Shown: positions 3,389-15,402 of the stretch, one piece after another
How the letters are laid out: every line of letters starts with the position of its first letter
Position numbering within the stretch: position 1 is the stretch's first letter
Assembly: GCF_900120375.1 (NCBI RefSeq)
Contig: NZ_LT635480.1
Location: forward strand, 1 to 64,000
Source: Ndongobacter massiliensis
GTDB lineage: Bacteria; Bacillota; Clostridia; Tissierellales; Peptoniphilaceae
Direction of reading: 5' to 3'
Length of the DNA: 64,000 bases
The notes under the pieces: generated by a model
The model's database searches: none
The model's input: the letters and a program-made list of their open reading frames with translations, nothing else
What the model was told of the DNA's origin: nothing
Position numbers and translations under genes: made by a program

Positions 3389-3416
3389 AAAATAGGTGCT
3401 GAAAAGCACCTTCTAT

Positions 3417-3492
3417 CGCGGGGTGGAGCAGCTGGCAGCTCGTCGGGCTCATAACCCGGAGGTCGTAGGTTCGAATCCTGCCCCCGCAACCA
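3417..3492 (+). tRNA. Initiator tRNA-Met (CAT)
   Basis: The sequence folds as a complete cloverleaf with anticodon CAT in the loop CTCATAA. Two initiator hallmarks are present: a C1-A72 mismatch at the end of the acceptor stem, and three G-C pairs (GGG/CCC) in the anticodon stem. The CCA end is encoded (3490-3492). It is co-transcribed with 5S and followed at once by a terminator. The island starts downstream, but no second copy of the tRNA 3' end is seen at the island's far side. Confidence 0.96.
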
Positions 3493-3503
3493 TCTTAGAA
3501 CAT

Positions 3504-3546
3504 AGCCGTTGATACAATTTTCGTATCAGCGGCTGTTTTCTTTTTG
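3504..3546 (+). terminator. rRNA/tRNA operon terminator
   Basis: AGCCGTTGATAC (3504-3515) pairs with GTATCAGCGGCT (3523-3534) around a 7-base loop, with one G-U pair, and is followed by GTTTTCTTTTT. A clear rho-independent terminator ending the rRNA operon. Confidence 0.9.
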
Positions 3547-3634
3547 GAATGCATTCAAAATCACCTTGTAATGCACATTGTTGATGTGTTAATAGAATTG
3601 TATCATTTCAGAAAAAAGAAAGGACAGGGAGCTA

Positions 3635-4117
3635 ATGTTCTATACAAATTCAAAACGAGAGATAAGTTATTTCGGGTTTGAGGATGGCGAGGAAATTAAA
3701 AGGAAGCATCCTGACCCGAGCAAAGCGATTCAAAGCTTGAACGATTTGTTCGGACTACTGCTTAAAGCGTGGTCAAAGGAAACGGCATATCCCTCAAGTC
3801 AAAAGGATCCTAACTTCAATATCGATAACGATCCCACCTTTGGCCAATGTGCAATCACAGCGACACTTGTCTACGATTTGTTTGGTGGGAGCATTCATAA
3901 GGTTAACGTTTCCGGAGGTGGGACCCATTATTTCAATAGAATCAATGGTGGATACATTGATTTAACGAGTGATCAGTTTTCACTTTATGGAATTCCGTTG
4001 TCGTATGAACCTAATCAGGAAATTAGTCGTGAATATTGCGGAAAAAACCCCAATACCCTTAAACGATATAAACTATTGATAAAAAGCGTAGCAGATGAAA
4101 TTGCGAGAATGGAATAG
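3635..4117 (+). CDS. YunG-like hypothetical protein
   Basis: A 160-residue soluble protein with no signal peptide or membrane segment. The central stretch DPTFGQCAITATLVYDLFGG, then GGGTHYFNRINGGYIDLTSDQF, is the recognisable core of the small YunG family of Firmicutes. It has Cys, His and Asp/Ser residues spaced as in papain-like folds, but its function is unknown. AGGGAG lies 4 bases before the ATG. It stands alone at the left edge of the island and points rightward, unlike the phage-like genes beside it. Its codon use is more AT-rich than the chromosomal core. Family assignment is from recall. Confidence 0.7.
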   Translation: MFYTNSKREISYFGFEDGEEIKRKHPDPSKAIQSLNDLFGLLLKAWSKETAYPSSQKDPNFNIDNDPTFGQCAITATLVYDLFGGSIHKVNVSGGGTHYFNRINGGYIDLTSDQFSLYGIPLSYEPNQEISREYCGKNPNTLKRYKLLIKSVADEIARME

Positions 4118-4141
4118 CGGAAGAAATGAGCGGAGCAGAAT

Positions 4142-4702
4142 TCAGATTCTGCCCGGGATAGCAAGTAAAATCTCGCTGCCGTCTTTGAAGTGATAAAGTA
4201 AAGTGCTATCGCTGTTTACGGTCACCGTGTCCACAGTGCTCATCCAAAGTGTATTGCTGAACTTTATGGGCAGGATATCCGAGTCGAAGATGGAAAACAT
4301 ATAGCCGCTCAGAATCGAGCTTCGATGATTTTTATCCTCGATGGCGGACTGTGTTTCCTCAAACTCTGCCTGCAGGGATTCATAGCGGGAGACCTGCATG
4401 TCGTAGCGCTTTTGGTAGTCTTCCTGATCAAGTGCCCGAGTGGCATTTTCATTTACAATCCGCGAGATCATCTCCGCAACCACTTCCATCTCCTGTGAAA
4501 GGTCCTGAAGCCTTGCTTCTTCCTTAGAGCAATCCGTCAGTTCATCCTTTAGTTCACGGCAGTGAACCAGCAGCTTTTCTTTGTCGGCTAAAAGCAGGCT
4601 TAGTGCCTTTACAAAAGATTCCTGAATCTCCGCTCTCGGCCAGGCCGCTTTTCCGAGCGATGATTTCTTCTGATTTACGAAGGAAATCAGCGTCCAGCTC
4701 AT
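4142..4702 (-). pseudogene. Large serine recombinase, C-terminal remnant
   Basis: Only the coiled-coil and C-terminal end of a large serine recombinase remains. AEIQESFVKALSLLLADKEK, then a long charged helical run (coiled coil), then the end motif SNTLWMSTVDTVTVNSDSTLLYHFKDGSEI are typical of these enzymes. The catalytic serine domain, recombinase domain and zinc ribbon are missing. The first 20 or so residues of the open frame belong to a different upstream gene in another frame, so a deletion appears to have joined the two. It cannot catalyse integration. The full-length family member would be about 500 residues. Confidence 0.7.
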
Positions 4703-4781
4703 GGTCCTCTATGAGAGAAAAGAGCAGCGCCATGAGCGATTGATCGCAAAGCACATTCTTTTTTACGTTGTCTTTTTCCAT
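4554..4781 (-). CDS. Small helical protein fused by deletion
   Basis: Starts at MEKDNVKKNVLCDQ and continues as a short helical protein (LMALLFSLIEDHELDADFLRKSEEIIARK). Clostridial mobile elements often carry small SHOCT-like proteins of this layout just before recombinase genes, but I do not recognise the family with certainty. After IIARKSGL the frame runs into sequence that, one frame over, encodes the recombinase remnant; the last 20 or so residues are therefore probably not original. An in-frame start exists 18 codons earlier but has no better ribosome binding site. Function unknown. Confidence 0.45.
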   Translation of the reverse strand: MEKDNVKKNVLCDQSLMALLFSLIEDHELDADFLRKSEEIIARKSGLAESGDSGIFCKGTKPAFSRQRKAAGSLP

Positions 4782-4880
4782 AGTGTTCACCCGGTAATAA
4801 TCATCAGGCAGGGGAGCCGAGATGTATATACACAAGGCTCCCGAGCCTTAACCCTAGCTTGAAGCTATATTTATTTTCTT

Positions 4881-4903
4881 AACCCTATATTGAACATAGG
4901 GTT
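4881..4903 (-). terminator. Hairpin after the capsid gene
   Basis: AACCCTAT (4881-4888) and ATAGGGTT (4896-4903) form an 8-bp hairpin with a 7-base loop just past the capsid stop codon. There is no clean U-tract, so termination is uncertain. The inner 18 bases recur inverted, 16 of 18 matching, at 8584-8601 at the start of the leftward module. Confidence 0.45.
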
Positions 4904-5801
4904 ATTTGACCGTGAGCGTGCGGACGGCTTCCTGTCTTACCAGTTTTCCGTCCAGACGTTCATAGGCCGCATAGGCGACCTGTCCCTTATTTGAGAAAAG
5001 CTCAAATAAGGGCTTTATGGTCAGTTCCTGCCTTTGTAAGAGCCAGAAGTAGGAAAGGTCACCGAAGAGAAGTGGCTTTGTTCCGCTTGATGTGGCAGGT
5101 ATGTAGGGGCTGGTGACTACAGGTTTTCCCAAGAGGGTATCGTGATCCTCCTGCCAGAGGGGATAGCCGCTTTGGTCTTTCTCCATACGAAGAGAAAAAG
5201 CGGTCTCGTCGCTCATAACCCAGATGGCATGTTTCCTATATTCCGGCTCAAGCGAGAAGTAGAGTGTAACTACATCATCAAAGCTGATTTTTCCTGTCTC
5301 AGCTGATGGGGTGGAATCGGCACTGTTTAGAAGTCCTAATGGTTCCTCAATTCCCGTTCCCGTGAGCAGGACTTTTTCTTCCGCTCTGGCAAAGCGTCTT
5401 GCAAAATCCCGCATCAGATAGGTGTCAAGGTCAAATTTTGTGTCTTTGACAAAGCGTAAAAGAAGTTTGGTTAGAGATGCGATTTTATAAAAATCATAAG
5501 CGATTTTCTTAAAATCATCGCTATCTGTAGGATAAAGCATTCCTTCACCGGTTACTTTGGCTTCTCCTGTTGAACAAACTGCAACGATGGTGCCCTCTGC
5601 CCAGTTAACAGCAGTTTTTGTTGCATACTTTCTAAAGAGGCAGTCTTCTTCCATCGCCTTATTAAAAATCTTTACATCAGATTCCGGAATAAGGTATCCG
5701 TTAGATATTTTGCTGTTCGCTTCTTTTAACATATAATTACTTGTGCTTTGGTTGCGAAGCATGTCCTGAAATTCCAATTTATAAGTGTTGGTGTTTAACA
5801 T
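4902..5801 (-). CDS. HK97-fold phage major capsid protein
   Basis: A 299-residue protein with the look of HK97-family major capsid proteins: an N-terminal helical segment, a middle with RDFARRFARAEEKVLLTGTG and EPLGLL, and a C-terminal part with KPVVTSPYIP, LLFGDLSYFWLLQRQEL and a terminal VRQEAVRTLTV. The start was placed at the ATG preceded by AGGAGGAATTTTACCT; the 53 extra upstream codons in frame look non-coding. No terminase, portal, protease or tail gene lies nearby, so it cannot build a particle alone. It would have to assemble on a helper's machinery or be a relic. Confidence 0.8.
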   Translation of the reverse strand: MLNTNTYKLEFQDMLRNQSTSNYMLKEANSKISNGYLIPESDVKIFNKAMEEDCLFRKYATKTAVNWAEGTIVAVCSTGEAKVTGEGMLYPTDSDDFKKIAYDFYKIASLTKLLLRFVKDTKFDLDTYLMRDFARRFARAEEKVLLTGTGIEEPLGLLNSADSTPSAETGKISFDDVVTLYFSLEPEYRKHAIWVMSDETAFSLRMEKDQSGYPLWQEDHDTLLGKPVVTSPYIPATSSGTKPLLFGDLSYFWLLQRQELTIKPLFELFSNKGQVAYAAYERLDGKLVRQEAVRTLTVK

Positions 5802-5999
5802 AGGTAAAATTCCTCCTGAAATTTGATTTTGGGGGTTAGTCCCCCGTTTGAATTGAACTTTTTTTGTACGGCGCCCATCGCCCGTTGCCGGAGAAACCCT
5901 CCCCCCGAGATTAGATGCCCCCTCCAGGTGCGAATCAGGGTGATCTACAGGTTTGACCACAGCGTTTTAGAGTTAGTCGATTTTTAGAATTTCCTTTTT
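5802..5999. other. Gap between capsid and left palindrome
   Basis: No supported gene. The leftward frame of the capsid gene stays open through it, but the translation is low-complexity and lacks a start signal. It contains the capsid ribosome binding site at its left end. A deleted gene may have lain here; this is inference from the open but featureless frame. Confidence 0.4.
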
Positions 6000-6084
6000 G
6001 TAGCTGTATGTAGCAGGATTTTCTATAGAGTCCTATATTTCGCTTAAATAGAGGTAACTGAAAAAACCTGCTACATCTTGCAAC
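6000..6084. repeat. Iteron-bearing palindrome, left copy
   Basis: GTAGCAGG-ATTTT (from 6010) and AAAAAA-CCTGCTAC (to 6074) are inverted arms around an AT-rich core of about 40 bases. Each arm carries a second, degenerate 8-mer exactly 10 bases further out (GTAGCTGT at 6000; CTTGCAAC at 6077-6084). The core 65 bases match the reverse complement of 8739-8802 at about 60 positions. Paired short iterons around an AT-rich core next to a primase-helicase gene resemble satellite replication origins. The structure is seen; the origin role is inferred. Confidence 0.6.
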
Positions 6085-6095
6085 ACGACCTGTGT

Positions 6096-7346
6096 TCATG
6101 AGAGAAAGTCCTCCTCTGCATTTAGTCTGTACGCTAAAAGCATGGTGGTAGGATTGCCTCCGACATTAGGGCGCTTCCTTGCAATCTCCGCAACTTTACG
6201 AAGTTCGTGATTGAAGTTGCGATTGTTCTCAGGAAACAGTGCGTTTCTTACACACCAGACTCGATAAGCGTCATAGACTTGAGAAGTTCTCACTTCGGCA
6301 CTTGAATCTTCAATTAGGGTTTCATCAATGAACTGTATGACCTTGTTGCTGTCACGGGCATAACTTGCTGTGGATTCAAGCACTGCTTTCGGCGGTTCTA
6401 AACCATCCTCAAGCAGCATTTGGTAACCTTCGAGCAACCAGTTTAAAATCGCACTCTGTACATCGGATTTGGCGAAGCGGTCCTTTAAGCTCTTATCCTG
6501 TTCGGACTCGTCAAAGTGCCGTTCAAAAGGAATAATGAGCACCCGACCGCTGGTAAATAGCGTCATATCGTTGACTGTGGGCAAGTAGTTGGTATTGATG
6601 TAAATCTTGAACTGCGGCTGAAAGTCAAAGCTGTTCTCATGCAGAAAGCGGGCGTTTAAGGTGTCGTTTCCCGTCATGGTTTTAACCTGTGCGGCATTTA
6701 AGAGAAGTCCTCGTCCGGGTTCTGAAATATTGGCTAATCGGATACCGACCAGTCTTGCGATATCCTCGCTGGGTGCCTGACTATTTGTGAAGCGCTTCTG
6801 TGCTATGGTTTCAGGTCTTACAGCTCTTCCGTAATCGCCTAAGACTTTGAGCACGCTTTCCATGAGCGTTCCCTTGCCGTTGCGACTGGTTTCGCCATAG
6901 AGGAAGAACAGGCACTCGTGCCGAGTATCGCCCGTAACGGCATAACCGAGAGATTTTTGAAGAAACTTTGCCTTATCAAGGTCACCGCTCATAATCTCAT
7001 CGATATATTGTTCAAAGCGCTCTGAGCGCACTTCCGGCAGGTAGGATGCTCCAGCGATTTTACTGAGGTAGTCTGAATCACTGTGCTCTTTAAAATCCAT
7101 TGTCCGCACATCGAGTGTGCCGTTTTGACAGTTCAGGAGATAACGATCCTGATCAAAGGTATTGAACGGCAAAGGATAAACGCTCTGGGCTTCTTTGAGA
7201 TAGGTTTCCCGGAATCGGCGCTGTTGCCATTTGCCGCATTCTTTGAGGAAGCTTGTCCTGAGATGCTCTTCATTGATGGTGAGGGTGTATTGCAGAAGGC
7301 CGTCCGCTAAACTCTTGCACAGCTCCATGGCCTTTAGGGTTCCCAC
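6096..7346 (-). pseudogene. Primase-helicase, C-terminal (D5/P4 helicase) part
   Basis: The helicase half of a phage/satellite primase: D5-type N-terminal region, then FLYGETSRNGKGTLMESVLKVLG (Walker A GETSRNGKGT), FTNSQAPSEDIARLVGIRLA (Walker B region), IYINTNYLPTVND (sensor) and GRVLIIPFERHF. It opens at a GTG, in the same frame as the upstream ORF, and the reading frame continues unbroken to a single TAA at 7362-7364. The two pieces therefore look like one gene cut by a nonsense mutation. Restart from the GTG has no convincing ribosome binding site. It ends with TGA next to the left palindrome. Confidence 0.8.
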
Positions 7347-7361
7347 ATCCGCCTGCCAGCA

Positions 7362-8390
7362 TTAGCCGCTAAAGACATACCATTTCTTTCGCTCCGGGAC
7401 GAAGCGGCAGATGTCCTTATACACATCGGCAAAAAGTCTACCGAAGCCGATATCGCCGAAGCGGTAGCGAGGATTGTTAAAAAGGTCAAAACTTTGCAGC
7501 TGTCCGGAAATGTTGTTGAAGTCCTCCACTGCAGATGTGACTCGCACAGGCTTATAAAAGGAAGTGCAGGACTTTACGGCTCGTTCGAGCGTAGACTTGC
7601 GGTAATCATCACGCTCCCACTTATCCCGCATAAGTTCGGACTGCCTGAAGATGCGATCCATCTGCTCCATATCTCCACCGCACCAGAATGCGAGCATGGA
7701 GCACAGGGCGAGATCAGCTTCACTCGGACTGGCATAGCCGCTTCTATATCCCTCCCAGAGTTGTAGAAACTTGTCCTTTTGCCTGCTCTTTTGTGCCTTC
7801 CGGATGACGGATTCATCCTCAAGGTAGCTGCCGGGAGCTATGAGCCGAGGAGAAGAATTCATGTCACGCTTCATATAGCGGTCTAGGATCAGTTGCAGTT
7901 CCTCATCTCGGTATGCCGGCTCTGTTTGATGGATGGTATTTCCGGTCAAGGTAACGAAACGGTTAGTTGCTCCCGGAACATAGACCTCCAGACCGATTTT
8001 TCTGTTATTGATGTAATAGTGGGATTTATCGAAAGTGAAATCTTTAACCTTCACAATGATGTGGACGCCCTTTCCGGACGGGCTGTATTCTGTGTAGGAA
8101 TCAAGTGTGTGGATGACATCCTCCGCCAGCCCCGAGAGTTCTCCGTCTTTGACACAGTCGTCGATATCCACAGTGGCAAAGGGAGAAAAAACACCCATGC
8201 CGATGCCGTCATACCGGGGTACGGCTTTTATAACTTCTTCAAAACTTGTGAAATGCTGAATGTTCCTGCTGCTTGCCCGCTGGCCGCTTATTTGATAGGG
8301 CACTTTTGTTTGTCTGCCTTGCTGCTTCTCATAACGCCAGAGACAGAACCTGCCATTTTCTTTTATATCTATTGCTATTTGCTCGTGCAT
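7362..8390 (-). pseudogene. Primase-helicase, N-terminal (primase-polymerase) part
   Basis: A 342-residue product with the prim-pol fold of phage/plasmid primases: RFCLWRYEKQQGRQTKVPY at the N-terminus, then GMGVFSPFATVDIDDCVKDG carrying the DxD metal motif, YSPSGKGVHIIVKV, and NNRKIGLEVYVPGATNRFVTLTG. The expected continuation into the helicase domain is blocked by TAA in place of a codon in KKWYVFSG-stop-CWQADVGTLKAM. A separate active prim-pol is conceivable, but the intact frame on both sides of the stop points to recent inactivation. The ATG overlaps the end of a small upstream ORF. Confidence 0.8.
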
Positions 8391-8494
8391 GCTTCAACCT
8401 GCTCTCTCTTGTATTGAGGGAAATTTCCCTTCACTTTCCCCTTGGACAAGGAGAGCGATTTTGGGCAACTTCTTTGATAATTTGTTTTGTTCAT
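8375..8494 (-). CDS. Small protein B, 39 residues, duplicated pair
   Basis: Begins MNKTNYQRSCPKSLS and contains LSKGKVKGNFPQYKREQVEA. Its ATG overlaps the stop of small protein A (ATGA), and its own end overlaps the primase start by 16 bases in another frame. It is a diverged duplicate of protein A: both share LSKGKVKG, a Q-F/Y-KRE block and a V-x-A ending, and the DNA repeats with a period near 104 bases. It is basic and without a membrane segment. No family is recognised. The ordered overlaps suggest translational coupling into the primase gene. Confidence 0.55.
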   Translation of the reverse strand: MNKTNYQRSCPKSLSLSKGKVKGNFPQYKREQVEACTSK

Positions 8495-8604
8495 GCTTTA
8501 ACCCACTCTCTTTTGAATTGAAGAAGAACCCCCTTCACCTTCCCCTTGGACAGAAGGGATGGTTTTGAGTAATTTTTTGACGACCTATGTTGGATATAGG
8601 GCAT
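8491..8604 (-). CDS. Small protein A, 37 residues, duplicated pair
   Basis: Begins MPYIQHRSSKNYSKPS and continues LLSKGKVKGVLLQFKREWVKA. The ribosome binding site AGAGGAG sits 9 bases before the ATG, the best in this arm of the island, which supports real translation. It ends in ATGA with protein B, its tandem duplicate. Very basic and soluble. The start codon region includes the near-palindrome shared with 4883-4900. No known family; a leader peptide or small DNA/RNA-binding protein controlling the primase is possible, but this is inference. Confidence 0.6.
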   Translation of the reverse strand: MPYIQHRSSKNYSKPSLLSKGKVKGVLLQFKREWVKA

Positions 8605-8659
8605 CAATTATTTCTCCTCTCACTCTGTAGGCAGGAGAAAGGGCTGTTTTGAACGGGGC

Positions 8660-8690
8660 AAAAAAAACGGCCTAAGTTCGGCTTAGGTCG
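8660..8690 (-). terminator. Terminator in the primase leader
   Basis: Read leftward, CGACCTAAG-CCGAA-CTTAGGCCG (8690-8668, one A-C mismatch) is followed by eight T residues (8667-8660). It is a textbook rho-independent terminator, yet no gene lies upstream of it on this strand; the next gene to the right is transcribed away. It therefore either ends a small RNA made from about 8700-8900 or acts as an attenuator before small protein A and the primase. Confidence 0.75.
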
Positions 8691-8728
8691 CGGGTTTAAA
8701 CACAGTTGGTGGAAGAGATTTTCAGCTT

Positions 8729-8812
8729 GTAGCAGGTTGTAGCAGGTTTTTCAGTTACCCCCATTTAAGCGAAATATAGGGCTCTATATAAAATCCTGCT
8801 ACAAGCTGCTAC
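8729..8812. repeat. Iteron-bearing palindrome, right copy
   Basis: Outer and inner 8-mers GTAGCAGG at 8729 and 8739 (10-base period) face CCTGCTAC at 8795 and GCTGCTAC at 8805 (10-base period). They enclose an AT-rich core that is the inverted version of the core at 6023-6061. The outer flanks (for example ACACCTGTGTTTATGA here and ACGACCTGTGTTCATGA at the left copy) lie in the same orientation in both, so the core alone appears flipped. Likely origin or binding site for the primase-helicase; inference. Confidence 0.6.
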
Positions 8813-8932
8813 ACACCTGTGTTTATGATGGGAGCGGAGATTATAATTTGTCAGCGAGGTCATTTTTTGTAGAATTATTCACGTAAAAATGATAGACTAG
8901 GTCTAGTTTCTCAAGGATGAAAGGAAAAAAGT
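8813..8932. promoter_or_regulatory. Divergent control region with operator
   Basis: This stretch separates the leftward primase module from the rightward XRE/defence operon. TAGAC-TAG-GTCTA (8893-8905) is a clear inverted repeat 28 bases before the XRE start and is the best candidate operator for that regulator. AT-rich promoter-like segments are present on both strands, but none matches consensus well enough to fix a start. AAAGGA before the ATG at 8933 is the XRE ribosome binding site. Confidence 0.5.
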
Positions 8933-9157
8933 ATGGCTGTATCCTATGACAAACTCTTACATCTCCTGATTGACAGGCAGATGAGCAATTCACAGCTCAT
9001 CAAAAGAGCCGGCTTCTCCGGCAATGTGATGACGCAGATTAAGCGCAGGAAATACATTTCCCTCGACAGTATAGAACGCATCTGCCGAGTGCTTGACTGT
9101 GGTGTGGACGATATTTTGGAATTTATAGATAGGGAAGACACAAATGGCAATTATTGA
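8933..9157 (+). CDS. XRE-family transcriptional regulator
   Basis: A 74-residue single helix-turn-helix protein: YDKLLHLLIDRQMSNSQLIKRAGFSGNVMTQIKRRKYISLDSIERICRVLDCGVDDILEF has the Cro/C1 five-helix layout with recognition helix around GFSGNVMTQIKRR. It overlaps mod by 14 bases, so it heads the operon. Small Cro-like proteins of this kind often control restriction-modification timing (C proteins) or the lysogeny switch of phage-like elements; its position opposite the primase module fits both. It probably binds the palindrome at 8893-8905 and may repress both directions. Binding is inferred. Confidence 0.85.
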   Translation: MAVSYDKLLHLLIDRQMSNSQLIKRAGFSGNVMTQIKRRKYISLDSIERICRVLDCGVDDILEFIDREDTNGNY

Positions 9158-11123
9158 TGAACTGATTCAGCAAATTAAAGACGATAAACTTAGAGACCGT
9201 ATTCAGGCGGAAACGGACAAGTTAACACAGCAGAAAAAGTTCGGTTTGGTATTTGAAAATCATCTGCCCGAATGTACTCCGCTCTATGAAGTCCCCGTTC
9301 AGGTTGGTAGCACTGTCTCTCTTAAAAACGGAAGTATCGATGAGCTTTATCTTGTTAAGGATATCAAAGATGAACAGGTCTCCTGTGTCAATAAAAAGGA
9401 TGGGAAGGAAGAAATCTTTCCTCTGAATGATCTTGTAACGACTGCGGAATTTGGTGAGCCGATTTATCCTTATCTGCAATATGTTGATTCTCTTTCCAAT
9501 GCGCCGGACAGCGAGCTCTGGCATACTTTGATTGAAGCAGATAATTATCATGCCTTGCAGCTCTTGGAATATCTCTACGCCGGCAAGGTCGACTGCATAT
9601 ATATCGATCCGCCCTACAACACGGGTGCAAGGGACTGGAAATACAATAACGATTATGTCGATAGCTCTGATTCCTATCGCCATTCCAAGTGGCTCTCCAT
9701 GATGGAGAAGCGCTTGAAGTTGGCGAAAAAGCTGCTGAATCCGGAAGATGGTGTGTTAATAGTGGCTATAGATGATTATGAATTTGCACATTTGACTGTT
9801 CTACTGGAAGAGCTATTTTCGGAATATGATTGCAATACGATCGTGGTAAACCATCACCCCCAAGGAGGTTCTGCAGATAATGTTGCAAGAACTCATGAAT
9901 ACGCTATTTTTGTAACACCAAAAGGAAAGAAAGTGATATTCGGGAATAAGAGTGAAGATATAGAAGAGAAATGGTCATTGATGCGTGGTGGTACGAATGA
10001 GCGAAATCTTCGCATAGGAAGACCTAAAAGCTTTTATGCTATTTATATCAATAAATCCACTTTGAAAATTGAAGGTGTTGGACCGGAGCTAGAAGCAAAT
10101 GAATCTTATGATTTAAATGAGATACCTAATGATTGTATAGCCATGTACCCTATTGGGAAGGACGGAAAAGAGAGGGTTTGGCGGTATACTCGTAGCTCAA
10201 TGATACAGCACATACATAATGGCGATATCGTCTGCACCCCCAACTTGTCATTACAAGTAATAAAACGTAGAGATACCAAATATGAGTCCGTGGTGAGCGT
10301 TTGGACAGACACCAAGTATAATGCTGGTACGTCAGGAACAGCTATACTGCAACAGATCTTTTATCCTAACAATCGCTTCCCATACCCGAAATCTCTATAT
10401 TCTGTATTGGACTGTATTAAATATTCGACGTTACACAAACCCAACGCCTTAATTGTTGACTTTTTTGCCGGTTCAGGAACAACCCTCCATGCCGTCAATC
10501 TCTTAAACGCCGAGGATGGCGGAAAGCGTCGCTGCATTATGGTGACAAATAACGAAGTTTCCGACAGTGAAGCAAAGAGTCTTGTTAAGCGGGGTTATCA
10601 ACCTGATGATGAGGAATGGGAACGCTTAGGCATCGCCCGCTATGTGACCTGGCCGAGAACCCTGTGCAGTATCAAGGGCGAAGATATCAACGGTGAACCC
10701 CTCAAAGGCAATTATTTAGAAAGTGACCTTCCTATGGCAGACGGCTTTCAGTCCAATGCCGTCTATTTCAAATTGGGATTTTTAGATAAAATCTCTATCG
10801 CTTTAGGTAGACAGTTCAAGGAGCTGCTCTCCGTACTCTGGATGAAGGCGGGAGCCATAGGATCATGCCCGCAGCTCGGAGGCGAGCACATTCCTAAGAT
10901 GCTCATTTTGCCGGGCAATCGCTTTGCTGTTTTAACGGACGAAAAAGACTTCCCGGAGTTTTTCAAGCAGGTAAAAGCGGCATCAAATATCGAAACCGTC
11001 TTTATCGTGACGGATTCCGAAGCGGGATACCGGGAGATGGCAGCCAAACTCCAGGTAAAAACAAGCTATCAGCTATACCGGGATTACCTAGATAATTTCA
11101 GAATTAATACGGGGAGGAAATAA
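9144..11123 (+). CDS. mod: Type III DNA methyltransferase (Mod)
   Basis: A 659-residue beta-class N6-adenine methyltransferase, the modification and recognition subunit of a type III restriction system. The catalytic motif DPPYNTG is at residues 155-161, before the AdoMet-binding motif FFAGSGTTLHAV near residue 440, which is the beta-class order. The region between them holds the target recognition domain; the C-terminal part is for interaction with Res. Length matches the family. It begins inside the XRE gene and ends 2 bases before res. No simple sequence tract is seen that would make it phase-variable. Confidence 0.93.
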   Translation: MAIIDELIQQIKDDKLRDRIQAETDKLTQQKKFGLVFENHLPECTPLYEVPVQVGSTVSLKNGSIDELYLVKDIKDEQVSCVNKKDGKEEIFPLNDLVTTAEFGEPIYPYLQYVDSLSNAPDSELWHTLIEADNYHALQLLEYLYAGKVDCIYIDPPYNTGARDWKYNNDYVDSSDSYRHSKWLSMMEKRLKLAKKLLNPEDGVLIVAIDDYEFAHLTVLLEELFSEYDCNTIVVNHHPQGGSADNVARTHEYAIFVTPKGKKVIFGNKSEDIEEKWSLMRGGTNERNLRIGRPKSFYAIYINKSTLKIEGVGPELEANESYDLNEIPNDCIAMYPIGKDGKERVWRYTRSSMIQHIHNGDIVCTPNLSLQVIKRRDTKYESVVSVWTDTKYNAGTSGTAILQQIFYPNNRFPYPKSLYSVLDCIKYSTLHKPNALIVDFFAGSGTTLHAVNLLNAEDGGKRRCIMVTNNEVSDSEAKSLVKRGYQPDDEEWERLGIARYVTWPRTLCSIKGEDINGEPLKGNYLESDLPMADGFQSNAVYFKLGFLDKISIALGRQFKELLSVLWMKAGAIGSCPQLGGEHIPKMLILPGNRFAVLTDEKDFPEFFKQVKAASNIETVFIVTDSEAGYREMAAKLQVKTSYQLYRDYLDNFRINTGRK

Positions 11124-11125
11124 GC

Positions 11126-13984
11126 ATGCTAGTTGAACTATTCCCCTTTCAAAGAAAAGCTTTACAAAATCTGCGCATGAATACAGCGGAAGCCTTAGGC
11201 AGCTATCGCCGGACGCATACGCCGCAGGTCGTCTCCTTTACGGCGCCGACAGGCTCCGGCAAGACGATTATTATGGCGGCACTTTTTGAGTCGATTCTTT
11301 TTGGAGACGAGTGCTATCCCGAACAGCTGGAAGCGATTATCGTCTGGCTCTCCGACTCGCCGGAACTTAACCAGCAATCGAAAGATAAAATTGACGGCAA
11401 GGCGGATAAGATTACTCTATCTCAGACGGTAACCATTACGGATGAGTCCTTTGATCAGGAACTTCTTGACGAAGGACATATCTATTTTCTTAACACACAA
11501 AAACTGGGCAAAAGTTCCAATCTGACCAAGCACGGTGACAGCAGGCAGTATACGATCTGGGAAACGCTGAGAAATACCGCCAGAGAAAAATCAGACCGCC
11601 TTTACTTTGTGATTGATGAAGCCCATCGCGGCATGTTGGGGCGTGAAGCAGGCCGGGCGACTACTATCATGCAGAAATTCCTGAAAGGCAGCGCTGAGGA
11701 TGGTCTGGAGCCGATGCCGGTTGTAATCGGCATGTCGGCAACCACAGAACGCTTTAACACGCTCGTAAAGGGAACAACATCCACGATTCACAAGGTCATC
11801 GTAACACCGGATGAAGTGAGAGCCTCGGGACTTCTGAAAGACCGTATCGTCATCACTTACCCGGAAGAAACAGCCGTCAGAAAAGACATGGCCATTCTTC
11901 AGGCGGCTACAGACGAGTGGAGAAAGAAATGGCGACATTGGCAGCAATATTGCTATGAGCAGCACTATGCCTACGTCAATCCTATTTTTGTCGTTCAAAT
12001 CGAAAATGCTACATCAGAAGAAATCTCTAAGACGGATCTCACTGAAGCTCTACGCACGATTGAAAGCAGAGCTGGCTATCGTTTTGAAAAGGGCGAAGTT
12101 GTGCATGCTTTTGGCGAGAAAGAGACCATTAATATACACGGTTTAGAAGTGCCTTATTATGAGCCTTCAGGTATTAATGATAATCGAAAAATCAAGCTGG
12201 TTTTCTTTAAAGAGAGTCTTTCCACCGGGTGGGATTGCCCTCGTGCGGAAACCATGATGTCCTTTCGTCACGCCAAGGATGCCACCTATATCGCCCAACT
12301 TCTTGGTCGGATGGTGAGAACACCGATGCAAATGCGGATTCAAGTGGATGAGAGTCTAAATGATGTACATCTTTTCCTTCCGTACTTTGAGAAAAACACT
12401 GTGGAAGAGATTGTGTGTGCCCTACAGGCTAGTGAAGGCGGCGATATTCCGACAGATATTTATGGTGAGAAGATGGGTGAAAGAACATTTGAAACCTGGT
12501 CTGCGAAATCACTTAAGAAGAAATCTGCTCCTCAAGCAGAAGGGCAAATGAGCTTAGATGATTTAGCTTTTCGTGGTAATGGTAATGCGCTTACTCCCAT
12601 TACAGACACGGTTGACAATTACATTACGAGCGGTGATGCTGCTTTTATCAGCGAAGGAGATACCATAACAAGGTTTGAGGACAGAGCAGCAGGTAATTAC
12701 GATACCTTACCAAAACCGGGTGAAGATGAATCAAGGCCAGTTGAGAGGACACATCTTTCCTCTGGCCGGCAAGCAATCAAAGAGACGGAGCCTTCGCAGG
12801 AGGATGCAGTAGTGTCTTCGCAAGAAGACGCACTCGACCGTGAAAGCATCATCAAGTTCATCAATGATGTCGGGCTTCTTACCTACAATGTACGCCAAAC
12901 CCGTATCAACGATTATTTAACATCCCTCTATAAGTTGACGAGACTCCTTGTACAATCGGGGCTTGATCCTGAGGCTACAGAAACGGTCATCAGTGAAATT
13001 ATCGTTAAAATTCGTGAATACGTACACAGCCTGCGAGAACAGGGCAAATACGATGATTTAGTGACTAAAGCGAAAGAGTTCAAGCTCTCAATGCAGGTCT
13101 TTGATGTCTTTGGAGAGAGTGTAAAGGATTTTCCAGTTCAACAATCTTTTTTCTCTACGAATGCCGATATTGAACGCCAATTTCGCCAGGCGGAAGTAAA
13201 GCTTGGCGGAGAAGGTGTCGGACATGCTTACGGAAACAAGTATTTTGATCCCCTTGATCCGGATAGTTATCAGCTGGATGTGATCCTTTTTGTTTCCGAT
13301 CAGGAAAATCTCAATCAGCTGCACGACTATGCTAAGACCAAGTTCCATCAATTAAATGACGAATACAGGCGCTATATGGTCACAGTAGACGAGAGCTACC
13401 GTCTGCAGTATGAACAAATTGTCTCAGATGGAGATCAAGTAAGTAAACACAACTTCCGTTTGCCGGAACTGATCCAAGCTGAGCACATAACAGGAGGAGA
13501 AAGATATTCTGACCATCTCTTTGTCAATGATGCGGGATATGCCAAGATCAAACTTAATGATTGGGAGAAGGGGGTCTTAAAGGAAGAGCAAGAACGCACG
13601 GATTATGTGTCTTGGCTTCGCAACCCGCCGCGCAAATCCTGGGCTCTTTGTATTCCTTATGAGATGAACAATGAATGGAAGGCCGCTTATCCTGATTTTC
13701 TCGTTATACGAAAAGACGAGCGACTAGGCTACATTGTCGATGTCTTAGAGCCTCATAGCCCGGATTTCGCCGACAACTTGGGCAAGGCAAAGGGCTTTGC
13801 GGAATATGCCCGCCAAAATCCCGGCGTTGGACGCATCGAGCTGATTCGCATGGATAAAGATCCGGTGGGAAATAAGCGTTTTAAGCGTCTTGATATGTCC
13901 AGAAGTGCTATCCGCGATAAAGTTCTGAAAGCTATGACGAATGATGAAATTAACCATATCTTTGATATGGATGGAGTGTTTTAG
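11126..13984 (+). CDS. res: Type III restriction endonuclease (Res)
   Basis: A 952-residue helicase-nuclease, the cleaving partner of Mod. The superfamily 2 motor starts with FTAPTGSGKTIIM (Walker A, about residues 39-50); FVIDEAHRG near residue 162 is the DEAH box; GMSATTERF is motif III; a later QLLGRMVRTP is motif VI. The C-terminal YPDFLVIRKDERLGYIVDVLEPH, near residues 855-880, is the PD-(D/E)xK-type nuclease. With Mod it tracks along DNA by ATP hydrolysis and cuts unmethylated head-to-head sites. All motor motifs look intact, and the stop is immediately followed by the next gene's ATG. Confidence 0.93.
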   Translation: MLVELFPFQRKALQNLRMNTAEALGSYRRTHTPQVVSFTAPTGSGKTIIMAALFESILFGDECYPEQLEAIIVWLSDSPELNQQSKDKIDGKADKITLSQTVTITDESFDQELLDEGHIYFLNTQKLGKSSNLTKHGDSRQYTIWETLRNTAREKSDRLYFVIDEAHRGMLGREAGRATTIMQKFLKGSAEDGLEPMPVVIGMSATTERFNTLVKGTTSTIHKVIVTPDEVRASGLLKDRIVITYPEETAVRKDMAILQAATDEWRKKWRHWQQYCYEQHYAYVNPIFVVQIENATSEEISKTDLTEALRTIESRAGYRFEKGEVVHAFGEKETINIHGLEVPYYEPSGINDNRKIKLVFFKESLSTGWDCPRAETMMSFRHAKDATYIAQLLGRMVRTPMQMRIQVDESLNDVHLFLPYFEKNTVEEIVCALQASEGGDIPTDIYGEKMGERTFETWSAKSLKKKSAPQAEGQMSLDDLAFRGNGNALTPITDTVDNYITSGDAAFISEGDTITRFEDRAAGNYDTLPKPGEDESRPVERTHLSSGRQAIKETEPSQEDAVVSSQEDALDRESIIKFINDVGLLTYNVRQTRINDYLTSLYKLTRLLVQSGLDPEATETVISEIIVKIREYVHSLREQGKYDDLVTKAKEFKLSMQVFDVFGESVKDFPVQQSFFSTNADIERQFRQAEVKLGGEGVGHAYGNKYFDPLDPDSYQLDVILFVSDQENLNQLHDYAKTKFHQLNDEYRRYMVTVDESYRLQYEQIVSDGDQVSKHNFRLPELIQAEHITGGERYSDHLFVNDAGYAKIKLNDWEKGVLKEEQERTDYVSWLRNPPRKSWALCIPYEMNNEWKAAYPDFLVIRKDERLGYIVDVLEPHSPDFADNLGKAKGFAEYARQNPGVGRIELIRMDKDPVGNKRFKRLDMSRSAIRDKVLKAMTNDEINHIFDMDGVF

Positions 13985-14593
13985 ATGTGCAATATTTGCA
14001 ATGGAGTGATAGGTAATATGGGTGATAATAGGTCAGATGAACTTATGGTGATCGAAGATAATATTAGAAACACATATGGGAGTGTTGTTTGGTCACACAA
14101 AATTCAGGAAAAAGAAGCAGATATTTCAATCAAAAAATATAAGATTCTTGAAACTATGAGGGTAATAGCTTCTTCTCTCACATCTGTTGGTATCATATCG
14201 TTGCTCTTTTCAAATGATTTGTGGATTAAAATTGTATCAGCAATACTATCTTTTATTTCTGTAGGCGTGAGCGCTTTTTTCAAATCTTTCGATTTGCAGA
14301 AAACGGTATCAAGCCATAAGGCAGCTGCTAACAAGTTACTAAAAGCTAGGGATGAACTTAGACTATTGCTAATCAAGACACGTTTGGATACCCACTCTAC
14401 CAAAAAGTTGCTAGAAGAGTATCAACAACTCGTGGCGGAAATTGATGCTATATATGCAGAAGCTCCAACTACATCAGATTTAGCCGTAAGAAAAGCGAGA
14501 ACTGCGCTTAACGTCACAAAAGACAATTTAATTACTGATGCGGAAATTGACAATAATCTTCCCCAATCATTAAGAAAGGATTATGTTGAATGA
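13985..14593 (+). CDS. SLATT-domain two-TM effector
   Basis: A 202-residue protein with two adjacent hydrophobic segments (about 49-68 and 72-93) between a charged N-terminal region and a long C-terminal helical region (KAAANKLLKARDELRLLL). This is the SLATT layout: two membrane helices plus a soluble helical module, thought to form pores when triggered by a CD-NTase. It starts on the base after the Res stop, with GGAG 8 bases before; an alternative ATG lies 33 bases in. It overlaps the CD-NTase gene by ATGA, so effector and sensor are coupled. The gene is visibly more AT-rich than mod and res. Confidence 0.8.
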   Translation: MCNICNGVIGNMGDNRSDELMVIEDNIRNTYGSVVWSHKIQEKEADISIKKYKILETMRVIASSLTSVGIISLLFSNDLWIKIVSAILSFISVGVSAFFKSFDLQKTVSSHKAAANKLLKARDELRLLLIKTRLDTHSTKKLLEEYQQLVAEIDAIYAEAPTTSDLAVRKARTALNVTKDNLITDAEIDNNLPQSLRKDYVE

Positions 14594-15402
14594 GTTACAC
14601 AGTTACAAAAAGCGCAGGAGTCATTCCTCAAGAAACAAGAAGTTTAATTTCTAGACGGTATAAAAGTATTACTTCGGCAATCAACAGAGATTTTTGGTCA
14701 ATCACGAGTGATACGAGCAATAGTTTTTATGTTGGTTCATATGGTAGAAACACTGCAATTTCCACTAGTGACATTGATATATTAACGGTACTACCGAATA
14801 GTGATTTTGACAGTTATAACAATTTAAAAGGAAATGCTCAGTCAAGACTTTTGCAAGCAGTTAGAAATGCCATTTTATCTTCTTATCCTCGCAGTGATAT
14901 TCGGGCTGATGGTCAGGTTGTTAAAATTGCATTTTCGGATGGCATGTATTTCGAGATTTTGCCTGCATTTCAGAACAAAGACTGGTTTGGTAACTGGAGT
15001 AGTACATACACATACCCGAATTCAAATATGGGAGGCAATTGGAAATCAACCAATCCTAAAGCAGAACAGGAAGCGATAGCACAGAAAAATAGAAATAGTA
15101 ACGGCTTGTTAGTGGATACTTGCAGACATCTTCGAGTCGTACGAGATACTTGCTTCAAAAGTTATCATTTGTCCGGAATAGTAATAGATACGTTTGTTTA
15201 TGATGCTATAGAAGGTTGGCATTGGCTTGAGCTGGGTGAAGAATCAACTCCAAATATAATTTCATACGAGCAAGTCCTTATGAATTACTTTAATGACAAC
15301 TTGACTTATATATCCGAATTACGTGCTCCTGGTAGTGGCGACTCAGTCAGCTTGGATAAAAGCAAAGAATGCCTTGGAAAAGTATTACGATTCATCGTTT
15401 GA
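14590..15402 (+). CDS. SMODS nucleotidyltransferase (CD-NTase), CBASS-like
   Basis: A 270-residue DNA polymerase beta-fold nucleotidyltransferase. GSYGRNTAISTSDIDIL (residues 49-65) supplies the GS motif and the two metal-binding Asp residues D61 and D63; FEILPAF (121-127) carries the third acidic residue as Glu122, where Asp is more common. Such enzymes make cyclic oligonucleotides on phage infection, and these activate a linked effector, here the SLATT protein. No Cap2/Cap3 ancillary genes are present, so it resembles a minimal type I CBASS. The last 20 residues are less typical, so a small C-terminal frameshift cannot be excluded. Confidence 0.82.
   Translation: MSYTVTKSAGVIPQETRSLISRRYKSITSAINRDFWSITSDTSNSFYVGSYGRNTAISTSDIDILTVLPNSDFDSYNNLKGNAQSRLLQAVRNAILSSYPRSDIRADGQVVKIAFSDGMYFEILPAFQNKDWFGNWSSTYTYPNSNMGGNWKSTNPKAEQEAIAQKNRNSNGLLVDTCRHLRVVRDTCFKSYHLSGIVIDTFVYDAIEGWHWLELGEESTPNIISYEQVLMNYFNDNLTYISELRAPGSGDSVSLDKSKECLGKVLRFIV

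What the first reader, a model, noticed from the sequence alone, without database searches (positions are those of the whole stretch)
6000..8812. Inverted iteron palindromes flanking the primase gene, with a flipped core
The elements at 6000-6084 and 8729-8812 each have two 8-mers at a 10-base period on each side (GTAGCAGG family) around an AT-rich core. The 65-base cores match at about 60 positions only when one is reverse-complemented, while the outer flanks (ACACCTGTGTTTATGA versus ACGACCTGTGTTCATGA) match in the same direction. So the core has inverted between its arms, or the two were built by strand switching at a hairpin. This resembles a satellite replication origin present in two copies around its own initiator gene.
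Basis: partly seen in the sequence, partly recalled or inferred. Interest (0 to 1): 0.7.

Follow-up and report, generated by a model that had tools for sequence, protein, structure and literature searches.

The report
Twin flip-prone satellite replication origins
Two mirror-image DNA landing pads around a phage-satellite replication gene look like start sites for copying the element: the one after the gene is present in nearly every close relative, its centre has flipped over repeatedly in evolution, and two amino acids of the copying protein predict which DNA letter the pads carry.

Summary
Two inverted-iteron dyads (window 5999-6086 and 8728-8813) flank a primase-helicase gene, and they are the only two copies in the genome.

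Across about 130 related loci, a single dyad (two ~8-bp iterons about 10 bp apart on each side of a ~50-bp AT-rich core) lies directly 3' of the initiator stop codon. This is the PICI/SaPI-type origin layout. Only the window's clade adds an upstream copy; a second clade adds a copy ~580 bp downstream.

The flipped core is real and recurrent: the same dyad carries opposite core orientations in close relatives (proteins 91% and 80% identical), and the upstream copy is flipped between the window and viral contig L004. Template switching between inverted arms fits.

New here: the variable iteron letter (TGTNGCA) is predicted by residues 398-399 in the wing of the C-terminal winged helix (EK/HK/DK to G, SE/GE to C, small or nonpolar pairs to A). 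They are the two top-ranked of 410 columns. The model resembles RFX1, which reads DNA with its wing, and the P4 origin-binding domain.

The window copy is a decaying remnant. Origin function itself is inferred.

The parts
5999..6086 (-). Downstream dyad (ori1): iterons TGTTGCAA, TGTAGCAG / TGTAGCAG, TGTAGCTG in primase sense around an AT-rich core; begins 13 nt after the start of the primase stop codon
   Evidence: a dyad at the equivalent place in nearly all close relatives
8728..8813 (+). Upstream dyad (ori2), clade-specific second copy; core inverted relative to ori1 and to the upstream copy of L004
6086..6101 (-). AACACAGG box overlapping the primase stop codon (flank of ori1)
   Evidence: same box in other clades
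8814..8828 (-).
8697..8708 (+). TAAACACAGTTG, inverted partner of the same box on the terminator side of ori2
   Evidence: (I16)
8671..8687 (-). Intrinsic-terminator-like stem with T-run between ori2 and the primase, reading toward the primase; similar stem in L004 and L017
7362..8390 (-). Initiator gene, 5' part: primase-polymerase part and NrS-1-type HBD; ends at in-frame TAA 7362-7364
6096..7346 (-). Initiator gene, 3' part: D5_N/SF3 helicase and C-terminal winged helix (Pox_D5); wing residues N398-P399 predict iteron letter A
4902..5801 (-). HK97-type major capsid protein gene downstream of ori1
4142..4835 (-). Remnant: small ORF joined to the C-terminal piece of a large serine recombinase; intact in L017 and L004
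8933..9157 (+). Cro/C1-type HTH regulator, divergent from the primase
9144..13984 (+). Cargo: type III-like methyltransferase and ResIII/SNF2-type helicase-nuclease

Best explanation
The dyads are initiator-binding replication origins of an integrated phage satellite. The C-terminal winged helix of the primase-helicase (initiator) binds the iterons that face each other across an AT-rich core. This loads the SF3 helicase ring there, the core melts, and the fused primase starts synthesis. The copy directly 3' of the gene is the general origin; the upstream copy is a clade-specific second site, by analogy with P4 crr and ori1. Because the iterons form inverted repeats, the segment between them flips now and then, most simply by polymerase template switching between the arms. 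The dyad seems to tolerate either core orientation. Base specificity sits in wing residues 398-399, which have switched repeatedly together with the variable base of the iteron. Shown by sequence: conservation of the dyad, its position, the recurrent inversion, and the residue-letter covariation. Inferred: binding, melting, origin activity, the role of the second copy and the inversion mechanism. In the window the system is broken, because its initiator carries a nonsense codon.
For: A dyad follows the initiator stop codon in about 50 aligned loci from two searches, and an automated test passes in about 130 loci, some of them duplicates. It follows the helicase/winged-helix part, not the primase type: the DnaG-type primase of L012 (Zn_ribbon_DnaG, Toprim) has the same helicase and dyad as the PrimPol types. 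Wing residues 399 and 398 are ranks 1 and 2 of 410 columns by mutual information with the iteron letter (excess 1.11 and 0.96 bits; next 0.65). In 45 non-redundant loci every residue pair maps to one letter, with about 10 letter changes on a tree built without the wing. Loci found after the rule was noticed mostly fit: L064-L071, L105-L127. The domain model (mean pLDDT 82) matches RFX1-DBD Z 9.4 and the P4 origin-binding domain 1ka8 Z 8.4; RFX1 reads the major groove with its wing (PMC4333399). Core inversion: L007 vs L019 (proteins 91% identical), L048 vs L044 (80%), L050 vs L041 (74%), win_up vs L004_up, each 0 of 1000 shuffles; at least 7 polarity changes on the tree. PICI origins lie 3' of rep with two iteron sets flanking an AT-rich region and support plasmid replication (PMC6092414). 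[quoted passage not shown]
Against: No replication or binding data exist for this family. In P4, the site next to the alpha gene (crr) is annotated as a cis-required region while the origin is elsewhere, so the dyad after the gene might be accessory. For Cch2, deleting inverted repeats near the gene did not affect binding whereas deleting direct repeats did (PMC7581432). The residue rule has exceptions: E399 goes with A in L118 (NE), Q399 goes with G in L132 (EQ), and NA goes with both A and T if distant L139 is included. L113/L114/L128 (RKHP...GQ) have another iteron form. Some loci, such as L147, have no dyad at that place. Polarity calls for L109, L138, L142, L136, L124 and L117 are weak.
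Confidence: 0.85

Rival explanations
1. The upstream dyad is an operator: the initiator binds it to repress its own transcription or that of the divergent HTH gene, and only the downstream dyad is an origin.
For: ori2 lies between divergent genes, next to promoter-like sites (8848-8875 on +, 8854-8825 on -), and a terminator-like stem stands between it and the primase. Most relatives lack the second copy.
Against: ori2 keeps the whole four-iteron dyad and AT core, more than an operator needs, and its iterons are better preserved than those of ori1. In the HK clade the second copy lies ~580 bp downstream, not at the promoter. Promoter matches are near chance (2 found, 1.0 expected).
Confidence: 0.3
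2. The two sites work together like P4 crr and ori1: the downstream dyad is a cis enhancer and the upstream one is the true origin.
For: P4 has iteron clusters directly 3' of alpha (crr, with facing iteron pairs) and upstream of the operon (ori1). The winged helix matches the P4 origin-binding domain.
Against: Most relatives have only the downstream dyad in the several kb searched on each side, so it must suffice there or the true origin lies elsewhere.
Confidence: 0.2
3. The dyads are recombination or inversion sites (att-like or invertible switch) rather than origins.
For: Cores really invert, the elements carry large serine recombinases, and homology between L017 and the window ends at ori2 on the cargo side.
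Against: The dyad also follows the DnaG-type primase gene in phage-like contigs, its letter covaries with the initiator, and inversion breakpoints differ between cases. It fits the known PICI origin layout.
Confidence: 0.06
4. The dyad is an RNA hairpin or transcription terminator of the initiator gene.
For: It lies 3' of the gene and folds well (DNA energy z -4.7 to -7.3).
Against: No T-run follows the stem. Loops of ~50 nt and 10-bp iteron periodicity are not terminator-like, and the base covariation is with protein residues.
Confidence: 0.03

Closest known systems
PICI/SaPI rep-ori module (SaPIbov1, SaPI5, EcCICFT073; PMC6092414)
   Same: Primase and SF3 helicase initiator with the origin directly 3' of its gene; two iteron sets flanking an AT-rich region. 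Nearest solved sequence homologue by phmmer is the primase-helicase 7ola, from SaPI5 (E 1.1e-9).
   Different: Here the iterons are two plus two facing at ~10 bp; some clades have two dyads; the core flips; the elements carry large serine recombinases, their own HK97 capsid gene and R-M cargo.
Satellite phage P4 alpha with crr and ori1 (NC_001609)
   Same: Primase-helicase with C-terminal winged-helix origin-binding domain (1ka8); 8-bp iterons in facing pairs directly 3' of alpha, and a second cluster upstream.
   Different: Unrelated iteron sequence (GGTGAACA), crr is itself two 120-bp direct repeats, arm-type integrase; flipped-core state not examined.
pRN1-type plasmids (ORF904; PMC4234260)
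   Same: PrimPol-SF3-winged-helix protein with an essential ~100-bp stem-loop 3' of its gene.
   Different: The pRN1 stem-loop is 54 bp after the gene; no two-plus-two iteron arrangement or residue-base rule was seen in the passages read.
Geminivirus Rep iteron-related domain (PMC2974675)
   Same: Conceptual precedent: a variable base in the iteron (GGNGTCC) tracks one residue in the initiator.
   Different: Rolling-circle Rep of plant viruses; unrelated protein fold and origin.

Membership tests
PICI-type replication origin | Located immediately 3' of the initiator gene | tested here: met
   Window 5999-6086 after stop at 6096-6098; same in relatives
[quoted passage not shown]
   Four-iteron dyads in the relatives examined
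PICI-type replication origin | Initiator-dependent autonomous replication of a plasmid | not testable with these tools
   Needs a plasmid assay
PICI (whole element) | PICI-type integrase, PICI-specific regulators, phage-dependent induction | tested here: inconclusive
   L017 and L023 carry large serine recombinases (Resolvase, Recombinase), unlike the tyrosine integrases I know from PICIs; induction not testable. Not filed as a PICI
P4-type two-site replicon | Iteron clusters both directly 3' of the primase-helicase gene and upstream of it | tested here: met
   Window, L004, L017 only
P4-type two-site replicon | C-terminal winged-helix origin-binding domain | tested here: met
   Model vs 1ka8 Z 8.4, 78 residues, rmsd 2.6; RFX1-DBD scores Z 9.4
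P4-type two-site replicon | Both sites required in cis for replication | not testable with these tools
   Needs deletion mutants

The most novel reading that the evidence does not exclude
Satellite and phage initiators of this family read their origins through a two-residue code in the wing of an RFX-like winged helix, and they switch origin type repeatedly by changing these two residues together with one iteron base, while the origin core flips orientation freely between its iteron arms, so that origin direction is dispensable.
Probability: 0.55. Interest if true: 0.75.

Novelty: new variant of a known kind. Interest (0 to 1): 0.62.

Why it matters
How replicons that share an initiator family avoid firing each other's origins is seldom traceable to single residues. 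Here repeated, independent switches give a natural experiment: a two-residue, one-base rule that can be tested with a gel shift. The recurrent core flip shows an origin whose direction seems not to matter, and gives a clear natural case of inversion between short inverted repeats at an origin. The rule could also help predict which satellites and phages can co-replicate or compete in one cell.

Tried and rejected
Generic dispersed repeat: rejected, only two copies in the genome and no significant copies elsewhere in 130 family and 249 order genomes (the weak 21-32-bp hits there are chance-like). DNA-level search of the phage collection: no match; plasmid collection: only weak matches, mainly in the primase gene. 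L018 as a fourth close relative: set aside, its gene runs into unrelated sequence, probably an assembly joint. Gene conversion of ori2 from ori1 in L004: considered, but outer-iteron letters of L004_up (TGTAGCAGG...CTGCTACA) are of the upstream type, so it is orthologous to win_up and flipped; its near flank ACACACGGGC does equal that of L004_down, so partial conversion of the flank is not excluded. Single-residue rule (399 alone): replaced by the pair 398-399 after L118 and L132. numbers residues one too high (its N399P400 is N398P399). The whole-helicase fold model has low confidence (mean pLDDT 67.6), so only the C-terminal model was used for fold comparison of the wing. Literature searches for satellites with capsid and serine recombinase returned nothing.

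Full report
What was checked. Each has two 8-bp iterons of the TGTAGCAG family about 10 bp apart on each side of an AT-rich core of about 50 bp. TGTAGCAGG occurs 6 times in the window against 0.14 expected, five of them in these dyads. No other place in 64 kb has such paired arms, and the whole 1.86-Mb genome holds only these two copies.

Surroundings. The gene between them, on the minus strand, codes for a primase-polymerase with an NrS-1-type domain, a D5_N/SF3 helicase and a Pox_D5-type C-terminal domain. In the window it is split by an in-frame TAA at 7362-7364; intact copies exist in L004 and L017. Next to it lie an HK97-type capsid gene, a recombinase remnant, a divergent Cro/C1 regulator and a type III-like restriction-modification cargo. 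In L017 the same order is intact with two large serine recombinases. The window copy has lost most of both recombinases, so it is a decaying satellite remnant.

The family state. Searches of viral contigs and bacterial genomes gave 13 and 45 relatives in the first round, and more by alignment. In the relatives whose gene end is present and aligned, an inverted four-iteron dyad starts directly after the initiator stop codon. The iteron letters vary by clade: TGTAGCA, TGTCGCA, TGTGGCA or TGGGGCA. An automated test passed in about 130 loci, some of them duplicates. A few relatives, such as L147, do not show it at that place. Even remote homologues (27-32% identity) appear to have their own inverted repeats after the stop (by eye). 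The dyad goes with the helicase and winged-helix part: L012 has a DnaG-type primase (zinc ribbon and Toprim) fused to the same helicase and has the same dyad.

One copy or two. A second dyad was found only in the window, L004 and L017 (upstream of the gene) and in the L064-L071 clade (about 580 bp downstream). So the upstream copy is most simply a late addition. The arrangement of one cluster after the gene and one upstream is that of P4, where crr follows alpha directly and ori1 lies upstream.

The flipped core. In the window the two cores match in reverse complement. Relatives show which part moved. L004 has its upstream unit in the other orientation, inside the same surroundings (AACACA box, far TGTGTT box, terminator-like stem). 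Its outer iterons are of the upstream type, so it is the same copy, flipped. The single downstream dyad also flips: L007 vs L019 (proteins 91% identical), L048 vs L044 (80%) and L050 vs L041 (74%), each with 0 of 1000 shuffles as extreme. The tree needs at least 7 polarity changes, although a few polarity calls are weak. In L007/L019 the outer iterons stay in place and the flip lies between the inner ones (by eye); in the window/L004 case the outer iterons flipped too. Template switching between short inverted repeats is known to invert spacers and to homogenise arms (PMC8604942), and fits; a recombinase is not needed. The spacers inverted in that study were much shorter than this core, so the mechanism is an inference.

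A recognition rule. On a tree of the helicase the A-type iteron arose at least twice, once in the window's clade, which lies inside a G-type clade. I then looked for residues that follow the letter. Columns 399 and 398 (window numbering; motif RKRPxxGG-398-399-TT) rank first and second of 410 by mutual information, well ahead of the third. EK, HK, DK and EQ go with G; SE and GE with C; NP, GM, GA, SA, NE, AL, GL, SP, NM and NA with A. With very distant loci, NA and CA also go with T. In 45 non-redundant loci the pair predicts the letter without conflict; leave-one-out, 35 are right and 10 are abstentions because their pair is unique. A tree built without the wing needs about 10 letter changes, and within one phage clade SE/C, NE/A, AL/A and EQ/G occur side by side. 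The rule was noticed on 33 proteins; later loci mostly agreed, but L118 and L132 forced the change from one residue to the pair, so it is partly fitted. Shuffles ignore relatedness; the tree counts are the better guide.

Structure. The C-terminal domain was modelled from 42 sequences (mean pLDDT 82). Residues 398-399 lie at the end of the wing loop, just before the last strand. Its best solved matches include RFX1 and RFX5 DNA-binding domains (Z 9.4 and 9.6) and the P4 origin-binding domain (Z 8.4). RFX1 is the known case in which the wing, not the recognition helix, reads the major groove (PMC4333399). This makes direct contact between 398-399 and the variable base plausible; it is not shown.

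What it is. The dyads are best explained as initiator-binding origins of the PICI/SaPI layout, in a family of integrated satellites with their own capsid gene, serine recombinases and restriction-modification cargo, and in some phages. PICI origins lie directly 3' of rep with two iteron sets flanking an AT-rich region (PMC6092414), and a stem-loop after a PrimPol-helicase gene is needed for pRN1 replication (PMC4234260). I do not file the elements as PICIs, because the recombinase type differs and induction is untested. In the window the origins no longer have an intact close initiator in the same genome: the only other helicase found there is a 25%-identical one.

Limits. No binding or replication data exist for this family. 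The second copy could be an operator or a P4-like auxiliary site. Counts of loci include near-duplicates of the same contigs fetched by different searches.

Noticed in passing
L017 1-13242; L023 1-13245; L020 1-13248; L005 1-11032: A recurring compact element: R-M cargo, small HTH, primase-helicase, dyad, HK97 capsid gene, one or two large serine recombinases; no terminase or portal seen in the stretches read. Possibly a satellite family that brings its own capsid protein only.
   Followed up: partly
L023-L037, L043, L053, L061: Almost identical primase-helicase and dyad in very different Bacilli and Clostridia genomes (Rummeliibacillus, Pelotomaculum, Thermincola, Brevibacillus and others), pointing to recent wide transfer or shared contamination.
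   Followed up: no
window 8385-8578: Two tandem 90-nt copies (72% alike) upstream of the primase start, with similar sequence in L004 and L017, that could code short peptides or form a leader.
   Followed up: no
window 3414-4634: Stretch with tRNA-Met and a YunG-like gene is 96% identical to L017 from another organism, so the YunG gene may be element cargo at the right end.
   Followed up: partly
window 13985-15402: SLATT-domain protein followed by a gene whose sequence looks like a CD-NTase-type nucleotidyltransferase (second part by eye only); possible second defence cargo, within the 91%-identical stretch shared with L087.
   Followed up: no
L139: Iteron GTTGCCG contains the half-site recalled for the RFX X-box (GTTGCC, from memory), and the binding domain of this family has an RFX-like fold.
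   Followed up: no
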